Of a DNA stretch of 64,000 bases, positions 32,265 to 36,094 are shown piece after piece. The notes under the pieces are model-generated. The model ran no database searches. It saw only the letters and a program-made list of their open reading frames with translations, and was not told the origin of the DNA. The stretch comes from Labedella phragmitis (GTDB lineage: Bacteria; Actinomycetota; Actinomycetes; Actinomycetales; Microbacteriaceae), in NCBI RefSeq assembly GCF_004078635.1, contig NZ_RZNB01000003.1, positions 248,001 to 312,000 of the forward strand. The letters run 5' to 3'. Within the stretch, counting starts at the first letter, position 1. Each line of letters opens with the position of its first letter. A program made the position numbers and the translations under genes.

Positions 32265-32750
32265 TCAGAGCTCGGTCGGCTGCTCTCCTCGGAAGAACCG
32301 GGTGAGCAGTCTCGAGCAGCGTTCCTCGTCCACGCCTCCGACGACCTCGACGCGGTGGTTGAGTCGTCGGTCGCGCACGAGGTCGAAGACGGATCCCGCA
32401 GCCCCGGCCTTGTCGTCCCAGGCTCCGAAAGCGAGCCTGTCGAGCCGAGCGGCGACGATCGCACCCGCGCACATGACGCAGGGCTCGAGCGTCACGACGA
32501 GCGTCGCTCCCGGCAACCGCCAGTCCCCCGTCGCGGCAGCGGCGTCGCGGATCGCGATGACCTCGGCGTGGGCGGTGGGGTCGTGGTCGCCCTCTTTGCG
32601 GTTCCGACCCCGACCAATCACGCGCCCATCGCGGTCAAGGACGACGGCACCGACGGGCACGTCTCCGGCCTCGAGGGCCGTTTCAGCCTCAGCGTGCGCG
32701 TACTCCATCGCCTCGAGGATCATGCGGTCGACGATCACGATGATCCGCAT
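32265..32750 (-). CDS. tadA: tRNA(Arg) adenosine-34 deaminase TadA
   Basis: Converts A34 to inosine in the tRNA(Arg)(ACG) anticodon. The 161-residue cytidine-deaminase-fold protein has the zinc/catalytic sites HAE (residues 61-63) and PCVMC (Cys91, Cys94). The start could be ATG 32750, with GGGAGAGG directly before it, or ATG 32723 ([14 protein letters not shown]), which matches family length better. It is divergent from upp, 36 bases away. Confidence 0.94.
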
Positions 32751-32786: not shown

Positions 32787-33419
32787 ATGCGAGTGCACGT
32801 TGCCGACCACCCCCTCATCACCCACAAGCTCACCGTCTTGCGGGACGAGCGGACGCCGTCGCCCGTGTTCCGAGCGCTGACCGAAGAGCTCGTCACGCTG
32901 CTCGCCTACGAGGCGACGCGCAACGTGCGGACGGAGTCCGTCACGATCCAGACTCCCGTGACGGAGACGCTCGGCCTCGAGATCAGCCGCCCCCGGCCAC
33001 TCGTCGTCCCGATCCTCCGCGCGGGCCTCGGCATGCTCGACGGGATGGTCAAGCTTCTCCCGACCGCCGAGGTCGGCTTCCTCGGCATGGTGCGGAACGA
33101 AGAGACGCTCGAGCCGACGACGTACGCGGAACGACTGCCGGACGATCTGTCCGACCGTCAGTGCTTCGTCCTCGATCCCATGCTCGCGACGGGCGGATCG
33201 CTCGGTGCCGCCATCGAGTTCCTCTTCGATCGCGGTGCCGTCGACGTCACGGCGATCTGCCTGCTCGCGGCGCCCGAGGGCGTCGCCGCCCTCGAGAAGG
33301 CCACGGAAGGCCGCGACGTCACGATCGTGCTCGGGTCGCTCGACGAGCGCCTCAACGAGAACGGTTACATCGTGCCCGGTCTCGGTGACGCGGGCGACCG
33401 CCTCTACGGCCTGGTCTGA
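32787..33419 (+). CDS. upp: Uracil phosphoribosyltransferase
   Basis: Salvages uracil to UMP using PRPP. The 210-residue protein has [19 protein letters not shown], the PRPP loop [20 protein letters not shown] and the uracil-binding C-terminus [23 protein letters not shown] 32787 lies 7 bases after TAGGTT (32774-32779). The tadA-upp head-to-head arrangement is common in actinobacteria. Confidence 0.97.
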
Positions 33420-33434
33420 CCCTTCCTCGCTCGT

Positions 33435-33453
33435 AGGACGCGACGAACGTCCT
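33435..33453 (+). terminator. Weak hairpin after upp
   Basis: A 6-bp stem AGGACG/CGTCCT with a 7-base loop, 16 bases after the upp stop. A second, longer-range pairing CCTGCGA/TCGCAGG follows. A probable but not strong terminator. Confidence 0.4.
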
Positions 33454-33562
33454 GCGAACCGGACCAGGACGTCTCCCAACAGCTCGCAGGATCCGCGATG
33501 ATGAACAACTGCGGCGAAGAACCTGCATTATGACCGCGACTTTCGTCACCTTGTGCAATGAA

Positions 33563-33592
33563 TTGACACACTTCTCCGCGCGTGTGTTTAAT
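33563..33592 (+). promoter_or_regulatory. Strong sigma-70-type promoter of the leader-peptide/regulator unit
   Basis: TTGACA (33563-33568), an 18-base spacer and TTTAAT (33587-33592). It is the closest match to consensus in the window, inside an AT-rich stretch. The -10 ends 7 bases before the ATG of the leader peptide, so the message should be leaderless. Confidence 0.8.
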
Positions 33593-33599
33593 CAACCTC

Positions 33600-33701
33600 A
33601 TGACTGACAACGCGTACGTCCCGGGCTCCGTCGAGCTTCATCGGACTGCCGGCATGATGATGGCCGGCCGCGTCGCCTCCTGTTGTCGAATGTGCCGCTG
33701 A
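33600..33701 (+). CDS. Cysteine-rich leader peptide (putative attenuator uORF)
   Basis: A 33-residue ORF that begins right at the predicted transcription start and ends ASCCRMCR, with Cys at positions 28, 29 and 32. The middle, VELHRTAGMMM, resembles the actinobacterial putative leader peptides found before sulfur- or metal-related genes. It is followed by a 212-base hairpin-rich leader before the winged-helix regulator gene. Ribosome stalling at the Cys codons when cysteinyl-tRNA is scarce could control the downstream gene. This is inferred from layout, not shown. Confidence 0.7.
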   Translation: MTDNAYVPGSVELHRTAGMMMAGRVASCCRMCR

Positions 33702-33913
33702 TCCTGCGCCGTTCGCCCCGATCCCACCCCACCGTCGCAGCCACAGCCGGTCACGGGATCTCCGCGGGTCCTTCGGACCTCGCGGCCGACTGACGCTCCG
33801 CCGGTCGGCGCTCCCGAACCCCACCCGGGTTCCTTCTCGAACAGGACGACGCGGTCGTCGCTCGTTCCGACCTCCGGGTCGCACCGTCTTCATCATCATC
33901 AAGGACTCCTCCC
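33702..33913 (+). promoter_or_regulatory. Structured 5' leader between the uORF and the regulator gene
   Basis: It contains short hairpins: GGGTCC-ttc-GGACC near 33763-33778, GAACCC-cacccg-GGTTC near 33817-33833, and GACGAC-gcg-GTCGTC near 33844-33858. An SD-like AAGGAC lies at 33900-33905. The arrangement is compatible with attenuation; no classic U-tract terminator is visible. Confidence 0.5.
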
Positions 33914-34630
33914 ATGTCTCTCGCCCACATCGACAGCCACCCGTCCTTCGAGCAGCAGCTCGAGCGCCAGCAGACCCCGTCCGATGCCCCGGGCCGCCGT
34001 CTCAGCGCCGTCCCGTCCGGCGCCGAAGCCCGCGGCTTCGTGCTCTACGTCGGCGTCGACGAGGCCAAGGCCGCCGCCGCCGGAACCGATCTCGGGGCGC
34101 TCGTCCAGGCGCTCAAGGCCCTCGCGGCCGACCTCGTCCCGGCGTCCGAGACCTACGCGGCCGTCGCCCTCGCACCCGAAGGGGTCGGAGGTCGCGACGT
34201 CGACGTCGTCCGCCTCGCCCTCCAGGAGCCGGCCGCCCTCGCCCGGCACCGACACGTCGACGAGGCCGAGGACGCCGACCTCGACCGCGCACACGACGGT
34301 GTCGTCATCGACATCTCCCGCAAGCGCGTCGTTCTCGACAACGAGGTCGCGTCGCTCACGTACAAGGAGTTCGAGCTCCTCCAGTTCCTCGTCCTGCGCG
34401 AGGGACGCACGGTCGGGCGGACAGAACTCATCGAGTCGCTGTGGAAGGCCGGAGACGAGGACGGTGTGCCGAACGAGCGCACGATCGACGTCCACGTACG
34501 CCGTCTCCGCTCGAAGCTCGGACGGTACGAGGACATCGTTCGCACGGTTCGTGGCGTTGGCTACCGGTTCGACCGCCACGCCGACGTCTCGATCCGGCAC
34601 GCGTCCACGCCGTCGCCCGACCTCTTCTGA
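33914..34630 (+). CDS. Winged-helix (OmpR/PhoB-type) regulator without receiver domain
   Basis: A 238-residue protein. The N-terminal ~125 residues are unrecognised (GFVLYVGVDEAKAAAAGTDL). The C-terminal Trans_reg_C winged helix covers residues ~135-220: LTYKEFELLQFLVLREGRTV, RTELIESLW, NERTIDVHVRRLRSKLGRYE and VRTVRGVGYRFD. No phospho-acceptor receiver is present, so it is not a standard response regulator. It is controlled from the promoter upstream of a Cys-rich leader peptide, which hints at sulfur or redox control; its target genes are unknown. Confidence 0.85.
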   Translation: MSLAHIDSHPSFEQQLERQQTPSDAPGRRLSAVPSGAEARGFVLYVGVDEAKAAAAGTDLGALVQALKALAADLVPASETYAAVALAPEGVGGRDVDVVRLALQEPAALARHRHVDEAEDADLDRAHDGVVIDISRKRVVLDNEVASLTYKEFELLQFLVLREGRTVGRTELIESLWKAGDEDGVPNERTIDVHVRRLRSKLGRYEDIVRTVRGVGYRFDRHADVSIRHASTPSPDLF

Positions 34631-34656
34631 GACGAGCCGCGCCGCTCCCCCACCCG

Positions 34657-34700
34657 AACACGTCCGATGTGCACGAGTTTTCGTGCACATCGGACGTGTT
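34657..34700. terminator. Perfect 20-bp hairpin between convergent genes
   Basis: AACACGTCCGATGTGCACGA (34657-34676), loop GTTT, then the exact complement (34681-34700). It lies between the regulator gene and the convergent L,D-transpeptidase gene and should act as a terminator in both directions. Confidence 0.8.
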
Positions 34701-34717
34701 GAGACACCCGCGGGGGG

Positions 34718-36094
34718 TCAGTTGTGGACGGAGACCTCTGTGCCGACCTGCGCGAAGCGGTAGACGGCCTCGGCCGCGCCGATCGTGAGGTTGACGCACC
34801 CGTGGCTCATCATCGCGCCGGCCCCGAAGTTGCTGTGCCAGTACGTTCCGTGCAGACCCTGGTCGCCGTTGAAGTACGTGACCCAGGGCACATCCTTCGT
34901 GCAGTAGTCGTAACCGGGAACGCAGCCCATATCCTGCTTCGTCAGCTGGGCGTACACGCGGTAGTTGCCGTTGTCGGTCGGGCTTCCCGGCTTACCGATC
35001 GCCATCGAGTACGTAGCCATGAGCTTCTCGTTCTCGTACAGGCGGGTGACGCCGTCGCTCTTGTCCACGTCGATGCGGCGGTACAGCTCGTGCGTCTGCG
35101 CCTCCTGGACCTCGACGGCCAGCTCGTAGACGCCGTTGCCCGCTCCGAGCTGCTCGGCGAAGCTCGCGGCGACACCGTCGGTGGTGGGAAGGGCCCAGCC
35201 GTCCTGACCCTTCTGGATCGTTCGGAGATGCTTGCCGGCGGAATCGGTGACGACCTTCTCGTCGACGACGGTCCGATTGACCTTCTCGGGCACCGTCGCG
35301 ACGACCGCGGCGATCGCGGCCTCGTCGGCCGAGACGTGGAAGGTGTCGCCGTCCGTCGTGATCGTGAGCCACGACGCGACCACGGCGGGTTCGACCGCGA
35401 CGGCCTTCTCGCCGTTGATGTAGAAGCCGGCCTGACCGATCAGGGTGTTGAGCGAGTCGGCCTCCGCCTGTGCCTCGTCCGTCGTGATGACGGCCTCGAC
35501 CTCGCTCGGCTGCGGCGTGACCGTGATGGCGCCACCGCCGTCGGCGAGCGCTGCCGAGATGCTCGACGCGAGAGCGTCGAGGTCGACGCCCGTGCCGGCC
35601 TGTGCCTCGGCAACCGAGTAGGCGGATGCCGCGGTGTCGAAGGCCACTCGGGCGTCGACCGGGTCTGAGAAGAGCGTCGGGGCGGCGCCTCGCAGAGCGG
35701 TCGTCGCCGCTTCCTCGTCGATGTCGACGTCGAGATCGAGTGAGCCGGCATTCCAGCTCCCGACGTTCCAGAGCGGGTGGTCGGCGTGGGCGCGCTCGGC
35801 GATCGCTTTCGCGTCGACGGAGAGGCCGAGATCGGCCCCCGTGAGCGCCACGTCACCGTTCTCACCCTCGATCGTGATGGTCGTGGACGCGAGCGAGGTC
35901 ATGATCGACTGCGCGGCGGCATCGCTCGTCCGCCATCCGATCTCGGCACCCGCTGCGCTGACACCGGGAGCCACGAGGAGGAGGGAGCACGCGGTCGCGG
36001 CGACGGCGAGTAGACCGCCGGGTACACCGAACCACAGGCCGAGGTGACGCTTCTTGCGGACCGGCTCAGCCGGTGCCCACTCGTACTGAACCAC
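34718..36094 (-). CDS. L,D-transpeptidase (YkuD) with peptidoglycan-binding domains
   Basis: Makes 3-3 cross-links in peptidoglycan or attaches proteins to it. The 458-residue protein has one N-terminal membrane anchor (LGLWFGVPGGLLAVAATACSLLLVA), about 270 extracytoplasmic residues with two probable PG-binding repeats, and a C-terminal YkuD domain. The active site is YWHSNFGAGAMMSHGCVNLT with the nucleophile Cys433. GTG 36094 has GGAGAG upstream; a longer reading frame exists but has no coding look. Confidence 0.92.
   Translation of the reverse strand: MVQYEWAPAEPVRKKRHLGLWFGVPGGLLAVAATACSLLLVAPGVSAAGAEIGWRTSDAAAQSIMTSLASTTITIEGENGDVALTGADLGLSVDAKAIAERAHADHPLWNVGSWNAGSLDLDVDIDEEAATTALRGAAPTLFSDPVDARVAFDTAASAYSVAEAQAGTGVDLDALASSISAALADGGGAITVTPQPSEVEAVITTDEAQAEADSLNTLIGQAGFYINGEKAVAVEPAVVASWLTITTDGDTFHVSADEAAIAAVVATVPEKVNRTVVDEKVVTDSAGKHLRTIQKGQDGWALPTTDGVAASFAEQLGAGNGVYELAVEVQEAQTHELYRRIDVDKSDGVTRLYENEKLMATYSMAIGKPGSPTDNGNYRVYAQLTKQDMGCVPGYDYCTKDVPWVTYFNGDQGLHGTYWHSNFGAGAMMSHGCVNLTIGAAEAVYRFAQVGTEVSVHN

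What the first reader, a model, noticed from the sequence alone, without database searches (positions are those of the whole stretch)
33563..33913. Cysteine-rich leader peptide at the very 5' end of a regulator transcript
A near-consensus promoter (TTGACA-18-TTTAAT) sits 7 bases before an ATG that opens a 33-codon ORF ending ASCCRMCR, followed by a 212-base hairpin-rich leader and then a winged-helix regulator gene lacking a receiver domain. Cys-codon-rich leader peptides are known to couple cysteine or sulfur status to downstream expression in actinobacteria. Here the sensor would control a transcription factor and not an enzyme, which would make it a regulatory node for a sulfur or redox regulon not yet described.
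Basis: partly seen in the sequence, partly recalled or inferred. Interest (0 to 1): 0.7.

Follow-up and report, generated by a model that had tools for sequence, protein, structure and literature searches.

The report
Cysteine leader peptide governing a regulator
A tiny cysteine-containing coding frame at the very start of a transcript is conserved across two families of soil bacteria and probably uses paused ribosomes to sense cysteine shortage and switch on a regulator that may run sulfur metabolism.

Summary
In a Labedella genome (Microbacteriaceae), TTGACA-18-TTTAAT lies 7 nt before a 33-codon ORF ending ASCCRMCR*, 212 nt before a winged-helix regulator without a receiver domain. The sORF is conserved upstream of the orthologue in all 82 first-set loci with enough upstream DNA and in 16 of 23 loci of a second family. 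Its start codon lies 36-37 nt from TTGAC in 87 of 101 loci, so it is probably leaderless. The most conserved point is not the cysteines but a rare slow codon, CGA, before ATG (79 of 79), usually with Cys codons upstream and the stop two codons later. The leader after the stop is C-rich and G-poor in 101 of 101 loci, with no intrinsic terminator in the window. The same genome carries a sister cysteine leader, VSSSFPCCRCR*, before its cbs gene. The sORF promoter carries GTNAC-type direct repeats that recur before both metY gene types but not before cbs. Best reading: a cysteine-responsive, ribosome-gated attenuator (Rho-dependent or translational) controlling an autoregulated transcription factor of a sulfur regulon. 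The attenuator is a new variant of a known kind. The regulon step is inference. Nothing has been tested experimentally.

The parts
33545..33549 (+). GTCAC half-site of a candidate direct-repeat operator upstream of the -35
   Evidence: for the sequence; phased GTCA sites across 81 dereplicated promoters; enrichment against generic promoters
33563..33568 (+). -35 element TTGACA
   Evidence: a TTGAC-like element starts 36 or 37 nt before the start codon in 87 of 101 loci
33587..33592 (+). -10 element TTTAAT, 7 nt before the ATG
33600..33701 (+). probably leaderless 33-codon sORF, MTDNAYVPGSVELHRTAGMMMAGRVASCCRMCR*
33625..33636 (+). small hairpin in the sORF (GCTC-CGTC-GAGC; CCTC-NNNN-GAGG in many relatives)
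   Evidence: predicted only; codon bias
33648..33668 (+). hairpin GCCGGC-ATGATGATG-GCCGGC; its MMM codons are complementary to 33891-33899
33681..33701 (+). core TGT TGT CGA ATG TGC CGC TGA: Cys codons, invariant slow CGA-ATG, stop
33702..33913 (+). C-rich, G-poor leader without intrinsic terminator; candidate Rho-loading region
33891..33899 (+). CATCATCAT just upstream of the Shine-Dalgarno AAGGA (33901-33905)
33914..34630 (+). winged-helix regulator, 238 aa, unknown N-terminal domain, no receiver found

Best explanation
A cysteine-responsive, ribosome-gated attenuator. The transcript starts at or next to the ATG, so 70S ribosomes translate the sORF without a leader (inferred from spacing). 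With enough Cys-tRNA the ribosome passes the stop-proximal Cys codons and the conserved slow CGA codon, terminates and leaves. The C-rich, G-poor RNA after the stop is then free to load Rho, or the RBS region is sequestered, and little regulator is made. When Cys-tRNA is short the ribosome stalls at TGT-TGT-(CGA), four to six codons before the stop, and shields the region downstream of the frame, so transcription or translation continues into the regulator. The regulator probably binds GTNAC-type direct repeats (10-11 bp period) at its own promoter and at sulfur genes such as both metY types. Shown: sORF conservation, promoter spacing, CGA invariance, leader composition, the sister cbs leader, shared promoter repeats. 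Inferred: TSS, stalling, Rho, direction of response, binding by this regulator.
For: sORF found in 82 of 82 first-set loci with enough upstream DNA (84 examined, two contigs cut before it) and in 16 of 23 loci of the second family, most with a different N-terminus and GTG start. Coding signal: 43% of single-base codon differences are synonymous in frame against 31% and 25% in the other frames; three stop codon types at one position. TTGAC-like element 36-37 nt before the start in 87 of 101. CGA slows translation of a leader peptide in vivo (PMC4046918, passages). At least 2 Cys in the last 8 residues in 96 of 101. Leader C/(C+G) 0.626, C>G in 101 of 101, changing at the stop codon; 0.608 (78 leaders) against 0.509 in 120 control gaps; no intrinsic terminator in the window. 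Own cbs leader VSSSFPCCRCR*, similar in 8 of 27 cbs loci. Paired GTNAC repeats: sORF promoters 37 of 86, metY-A 28 of 41, metY-B 18 of 29, cbs 2 of 27, generic 17 of 209. The sORF-regulator pair stays together where no upp or tadA is found upstream (18 of 101 loci, two of them with under 1 kb of upstream DNA).
Against: No expression data, TSS or binding data. Cys number is not conserved: one Cys in the last 8 residues in 4 of 101 and none in L144, whose Cys lie further in. Seven of 23 second-family loci, and 7 of 7 and 1 of 1 loci in two more families, lack a clear sORF although the regulator is present. Leader folding is not conserved between clades. C-richness shows neither a rut site nor Rho use; the regulator coding region is also mildly C>G (0.541); rho was not looked for. 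Operator: the phased positions were chosen; one control set, 3' of the regulator, was also raised (13 of 82 against 5.0 expected, largest shuffle 10); a genome-wide pattern search in the own genome gave 7 hits against 5 for the reversed pattern; GTNAC is also a GlnR-type half-site (recalled) and the genome has a separate GlnR. The own sORF promoter has one clear GTCAC (plus GACAC 20 bp on), not a perfect 10-11 bp pair.
Confidence: 0.62

Rival explanations
1. Translational attenuation by long-range pairing: the ATGATGATG of the sORF hairpin pairs with CATCATC beside the Shine-Dalgarno; ribosome position on the sORF decides between local hairpin and long-range pairing. Rho is not needed.
For: Only the MMM segment of the sORF is strongly enriched in complements in the leader (up to 36 of 89 loci, 3.9 expected). 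CATCATC lies within 45 nt of the regulator start in 48 of 101 loci. The base after MMM and the base before CATCATC vary together: 35 of 48 can pair, Fisher p 3.6e-5, not corrected for relatedness. Translation attenuation is the mode reported for M. smegmatis cysteine genes (cited in PMC13236596, passage).
Against: The Cryobacterium A group and Herbiconiux lack CATCATC but keep MMM; L035, L037, L063, L084 and L090 lack MMM but keep CATCAT; the second-family sORFs have neither AGMMM nor TSFEA.
Confidence: 0.3
2. The sORF senses general translation speed, arginine or tRNA-Arg(ICG) rather than cysteine: the universal element is the slow CGA codon, and Cys codons are secondary.
For: CGA-ATG is kept where Cys codons are lost (Clavibacter SCRMSA, L142 RRMCA); CGA is slow in a bacterial leader (PMC4046918, passages); tadA, whose product makes the inosine needed to read CGA (recalled), is a neighbour in 75 of 101 loci.
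Against: At least 2 Cys in the last 8 residues in 96 of 101, directly before CGA in 79 of 79 of the first set (a Cys there was required by the search) and in 71 of 79 also one codon earlier; the cbs leaders have Cys but CGT, CGC or CGG, never CGA, for their C-terminal Arg; no tadA or upp is found upstream in the twelve Microbacterium-like loci L130-L141.
Confidence: 0.2
3. The sORF makes a functional small protein (for example a thiol or metal-binding regulator partner) and does not act in cis.
For: Whole-peptide conservation including TSFEA and AGMMM in the first family.
Against: Synonymous bias (CGA invariant, TCC and CTG strongly preferred) points to RNA or codon constraint; the N-terminus is different in the second family; no family match for the window's peptide.
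Confidence: 0.07
4. Chance ORF and annotation artefact; the regulator is expressed from another promoter.
For: No transcript data.
Against: Conservation in 82 of 82 first-set loci and in a second family; near-fixed promoter spacing; one match per matching genome, 32 of 60, reversed control 0.
Confidence: 0.02

Closest known systems
Cysteine leader peptides of actinobacterial cys operons and B. longum cbs (Seliverstov 2005, PMC1262725, passages seen) and leaderless polycysteine sORFs of M. smegmatis (Canestrari 2020, not held; seen only as cited in passages of PMC9094748 and PMC13236596)
   Same: Short ORF with Cys codons near the stop, no intrinsic terminator, pyrimidine- or C-rich leader; probably leaderless start; the window's genome has such a leader before cbs
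   Different: Target is a transcription factor; invariant CGA-ATG two codons before the stop; RNA hairpins inside the first-family sORF; found here in two other families
whiB7/wblC uORF attenuator (PMC11550727, passages seen)
   Same: Actinobacterial uORF controls a transcription factor in response to translation stress or amino-acid starvation
   Different: whiB7/wblC uses an intrinsic terminator and antibiotics or amino-acid stress; here no terminator found, Cys codons, different TF family
TnaC of E. coli (tna operon named in PMC1262725; details recalled)
   Same: Proposed stalling near the stop codon that shields a Rho-loading region
   Different: TnaC is an arrest peptide sensing free tryptophan; here codon-specific pausing is proposed
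uORFC-8-2 motif upstream of cysS in Rhodobacterales (PMC8632094, passages seen)
   Same: Tandem Cys codons in a uORF
   Different: Has an intrinsic terminator, an aminoacyl-tRNA synthetase target and an alphaproteobacterial host
GlnR (PF21695 + PF00486)
   Same: C-terminal winged helix 45% identical over 96 aa to the genome's own GlnR; GTNAC-type half-site (GlnR site recalled)
   Different: N-terminal domain does not match GlnR_1st; GlnR is a separate gene in the same genome

Membership tests
Leaderless cysteine-codon attenuator (actinobacterial Cys leader peptides) | Start codon at or next to the transcription start | tested here: inconclusive
   TTGAC-like element 36-37 nt before the start in 87 of 101; no TSS data
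Leaderless cysteine-codon attenuator (actinobacterial Cys leader peptides) | Cys codons clustered near the stop, conserved | tested here: met
   at least 2 Cys in last 8 residues in 96 of 101, at least 1 in 100 of 101
Leaderless cysteine-codon attenuator (actinobacterial Cys leader peptides) | Conserved as a coding frame upstream of the controlled gene | tested here: met
   82 of 82 first-set loci with upstream DNA, 16 of 23 in a second family; syn/nonsyn by frame
Leaderless cysteine-codon attenuator (actinobacterial Cys leader peptides) | Downstream gene responds to cysteine limitation through the sORF | not testable with these tools
   needs reporter or RNA-seq
Leaderless cysteine-codon attenuator (actinobacterial Cys leader peptides) | Target is a cysteine or sulfur gene | tested here: inconclusive
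   target is a TF; it shares promoter repeats with metY-A and metY-B but binding is not shown
Intrinsic-terminator transcription attenuator | GC hairpin followed by a U run in the leader | tested here: not met
   0 terminator-like sites in window 33400-34800; other loci not scanned
Rho-dependent leader attenuator | C-rich, G-poor region after the uORF stop | tested here: met
   101 of 101 loci C>G; mean 0.608 in 78 leaders against 0.509 in 120 control gaps
Rho-dependent leader attenuator | Rho required for termination | not testable with these tools
   needs bicyclomycin or Rho in vitro assay
GlnR | GlnR_1st N-terminal domain (PF21695) | tested here: not met
   regulator matches only PF00486; the genome's GlnR is L002
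OmpR/PhoB two-component response regulator | Receiver domain | tested here: not met
   only PF00486 matches; model pLDDT 78.9, pTM 0.50 shows no strands before residue 130; the best Foldseek matches are C-terminal winged helices (50 of 208 listed)

The most novel reading that the evidence does not exclude
An undescribed sulfur-control circuit of Microbacteriaceae and a second Micrococcales family: cysteine supply is read by ribosome pausing on a stop-proximal Cys-Cys-Arg(CGA)-Met motif in a leaderless sORF. That sets the level of an autoregulated winged-helix activator with a new N-terminal domain, which acts through GTNAC direct repeats on its own promoter, both metY types, and in some lineages organosulfur monooxygenase, AhpD-like, OsmC and substrate-binding-protein genes. 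A translation-level sensor is thereby turned into a transcriptional regulon.
Probability: 0.38. Interest if true: 0.8.

Novelty: new variant of a known kind. Interest (0 to 1): 0.62.

Why it matters
It would link a ribosome-based amino-acid sensor to a transcription factor, so one leader could control a whole sulfur regulon instead of one operon. It names a candidate sulfur regulator for two large families of soil and plant-associated actinobacteria; three paper searches aimed at these families or at an OmpR-type sulfur regulator showed none (no paper; 12 of 149 listed; 12 of 25 listed). The window's genome has no sulfite reductase match, so it may depend on reduced sulfur. The invariant CGA-ATG is a simple, testable clue to how stop-proximal pausing is set.

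Tried and rejected
CGAATG pairing with CATTCG in the leader: 19 of 101 against 9.2 expected, largest of 100 shuffles 17, and weak in the sliding test (at best 8 of 89 against 1.75). Slightly above chance, but not accepted as the reason for CGA invariance.

One conserved terminator or sequestering fold for the whole leader: clade consensus folds differ; rejected. Rfam at relaxed E-values gave only matches far under the gathering scores.

Many copies of the CCRMCR leader in a genome: the pattern TGYTGYCGNATGTGYSSNTRR was found once per matching genome (32 of 60; 28 had none under this strict pattern); rejected. The broad pattern TGYTGYYGN was uninformative. TGYTGYNNNTGYNNNTRR gave 11 hits in the own genome against 74 for the reversed control, among them the cbs leader.

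Regulon by triple GTCAY arrays (39 matches in 28 of 60 genomes, reversed control 2): 30 loci were looked at with a crude gene call. Seven lie inside genes (L218, L220, L222, L227, L230, L236, L241). Of 23 intergenic ones, 7 are sulfur- or redox-flavoured (L216 NtaA/DmoA, L217 metY, L244 OsmC, L235 AhpD-like; L229, L233, L243 SBP_bac_5). The others are not: zf-HC2 L219, NlpC/P60 L226 and M14 peptidase L232, leuA L224, ileS L239, rpsM L242 and L245 and ribulokinase-like L234 (named by eye only), and the rest unnamed or with no gene called. So the directed metY test carries the argument. Own-genome GTNAC-GTTAC search: 7 hits against 5 in the control, one of them metY-A; the named genes at two others (L318 PTS enzyme I, L322 sugar-type ABC permease) are not sulfur genes, L317 gave no name, and L316, L319 and L321 were not named.

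cysK (L174) has no Cys sORF in 600 nt upstream. Downstream neighbours of the regulator: in 75 loci no gene cluster of a crude call is shared by more than 26 loci, and that one was not identified; an AhpD-like gene adjoins the regulator in L075 and L235, with luciferase-like matches in L075. The N-terminal domain matched nothing in Pfam; NCBIfam matches reach into it only in part (for example a uroporphyrinogen-III synthase model over residues 60-221 at 41.5 bits, cut-off 273; 25 of 40 families listed). Four of five typed peptides gave no NCBIfam match and the fifth one far under its cut-off.

Full report
What is there. Read directly: TTGACA 33563-33568, 18 nt, TTTAAT 33587-33592, 7 nt, ATG 33600; frame 33600-33701 = MTDNAYVPGSVELHRTAGMMMAGRVASCCRMCR*; leader 33702-33913; regulator 33914-34630. 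The promoter string is unique in the window and absent from 100 shuffles. The regulator has a C-terminal PF00486 winged helix and no other Pfam match.

Conservation of the sORF. One scan of named genomes returned 80 orthologues, the best of at least 430, which with the window and genus members makes 84 loci (L001, L008-L090). Two contigs end too close to the regulator (L023, L066). The other 82 all carry the sORF (L009 after reverse-complementing); the record titles bear 21 genus names. Of 22 further first-family loci from a 297-genome order sample, 20 have it by a search that allowed any codon before ATG, L142 has it with Cys changed to Arg (RRMCA), and L128 was not placed by my script. Seven of 23 lack it, as do 7 of 7 loci of family f7 and 1 of 1 of f9. 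In a set of 101 usable loci a TTGAC-like element lies 36 or 37 nt before the start codon in 87. Stops are TGA 50, TAA 42, TAG 9; 43% of single-base codon differences among 55 distinct 33-codon sORFs are synonymous in frame, 31% and 25% in the other frames.

The invariant point. CGA makes up 62 of 2009 Arg codons in the regulator matches and 0 of 106 at the three other well-filled Arg columns of the sORF; one CGA stands in an insertion of a single sequence. The Cys codons vary more: in the last eight residues three in 81 of 101, four in 1, two in 14, one in 4, none in 1. CGA is read slowly in the his leader in vivo (PMC4046918, passages), so a conserved slow codon beside Cys codons and a stop two codons later fits a placed ribosome pause.

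The leader. After the stop, base composition changes at once: C 0.20, G 0.32 in the 20 nt before; C 0.45, G 0.24 in the 20 nt after; C exceeds G in 101 of 101 leaders, mean C/(C+G) 0.626, against 0.521 upstream of the promoter and 0.541 in the regulator gene. In 120 other 5' gaps of the same sequences C/(C+G) averages 0.509, against 0.608 in 78 regulator leaders; the window's own leader is 0.62, a value reached by 2.5% of controls. The window has no terminator-like site there. This is what a Rho-loading region would look like, the idea Seliverstov and co-workers put forward, as a weak prediction, for Cys leaders of other actinobacteria (PMC1262725, passages). A translational alternative exists: ATGATGATG in the sORF is the only segment with strongly enriched complements in the leader, CATCATC near the Shine-Dalgarno (present in 48 of 101), with some compensating change, but several clades lack one partner.

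A sister leader in the same genome. The cbs-type gene at G000:C1:959850 is preceded by a leaderless-looking GTG frame VSSSFPCCRCR*. Leaders of this kind (CCRR*, CRRCR*, CCRCR* and one RCRGT*) precede 8 of 27 cbs loci of the family, with CGT, CGC or CGG but not CGA among their C-terminal Arg codons; 19 of 27 show none by the same test. So cysteine-codon leaders on a cysteine gene are in use in this lineage, which supports a cysteine reading of the regulator's sORF. The own genome has no PF01077 sulfite reductase match, while 11 of 14 control genomes do.

What the regulator may control. The sORF promoter carries GTCA half-sites phased by 10-11 bp (66 of 86 occurrences at phased positions, 81 dereplicated promoters; positions picked), as expected for an OmpR/PhoB/GlnR-type winged helix (half-sites recalled). 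Its winged helix is closest to GlnR among solved structures, but the genome has a separate true GlnR. A paired GTNAC match (at least 7 of 8 bases, 10 or 11 bp apart, within 120 nt) occurs in 37 of 86 sORF promoters (7.5 expected from shuffles), 28 of 41 metY type A (2.9), 18 of 29 metY type B (2.5), 2 of 27 cbs (2.3), 4 of 81 stretches near upp (4.9) and 17 of 209 generic upstream regions. One control set, 3' of the regulator, was raised too (13 of 82, 5.0 expected). In metY-A 26 GTNAC occurrences in 41 sequences sit 47-49 nt before the start, an activator-like place. Triple arrays in 60 genomes were found 39 times against 2 in the control, 7 of 23 intergenic loci being before NtaA/DmoA monooxygenase, metY, OsmC, AhpD-like and substrate-binding-protein genes, others before genes with no clear sulfur link, and 7 of 30 inside genes. 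In L235 and L075 the AhpD-like gene adjoins the regulator itself. I read this as a sulfur regulon, at moderate confidence; binding is not shown.

How it likely works, and how sure. Leaderless translation of the sORF (likely), pausing at Cys codons when Cys-tRNA is short, aided by CGA (inferred), release of a block in the leader (inferred; Rho more likely than pairing in my view, with about 0.3 for the pairing rival), more regulator, then autoregulation and metY control (inferred).

Known or new. Cys leader peptides in actinobacteria are known (PMC1262725; Canestrari 2020 seen only through PMC9094748 and PMC13236596 passages), and a uORF in front of a transcription factor is known (whiB7/wblC, PMC11550727 passages). 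Tandem-Cys uORFs also occur before cysS in other bacteria (PMC8632094, passages). The listings of my library searches (two searches showed 12 of 149 and 12 of 25) held no paper on this sORF or this regulator; the library lacks most subscription journals. I therefore call it a new variant of a known kind.

Noticed in passing
L175 (G000:C1), sORF ending 85 nt before the cbs-type match: A leaderless-looking GTG sORF, VSSSFPCCRCR*, precedes the cbs-type gene of the same genome; similar CCRR or CRRCR leaders occur in 8 of 27 cbs loci of the family, this one included.
   Followed up: yes
whole genome G000: No match to the sulfite/nitrite reductase family PF01077 in a genome rated 100% complete, suggesting dependence on reduced or organic sulfur.
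   Followed up: partly
window 32265-32750 and 32841-33419: A tadA-like deaminase (75 of 101 loci) and upp (83 of 101) lie upstream of the sORF. TadA makes the inosine needed to read CGA (recalled), the codon invariant in the sORF; possibly a coincidence.
   Followed up: partly
L144, L148, L152, L154, L156, L158, about 30 nt upstream of the first GTTAC repeat: A TCTCA-N1/2-ATG-N-GGAC-like element, seen by eye in the printed promoters, upstream of second-family sORF promoters; its regulator is unknown to me.
   Followed up: no
window 33914-34290: The N-terminal ~125 residues of the regulator (GFVLYVG..ETYAAVALAP..) match no Pfam domain, and none of the 50 listed Foldseek matches (of 208) is described as a match to that part; conserved across two families.
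   Followed up: partly
L075:3800-6688 and L235:1500-1902: In one lineage the regulator adjoins an AhpD-like gene; in L235 that gene has a triple GTCAC array upstream, and in L075 luciferase-like monooxygenase matches follow.
   Followed up: partly
metY-A promoters L246-L275: The metY type A genes also look leaderless: a TANNNT lies 4-9 nt before the start codon in 30 of 30.
   Followed up: partly
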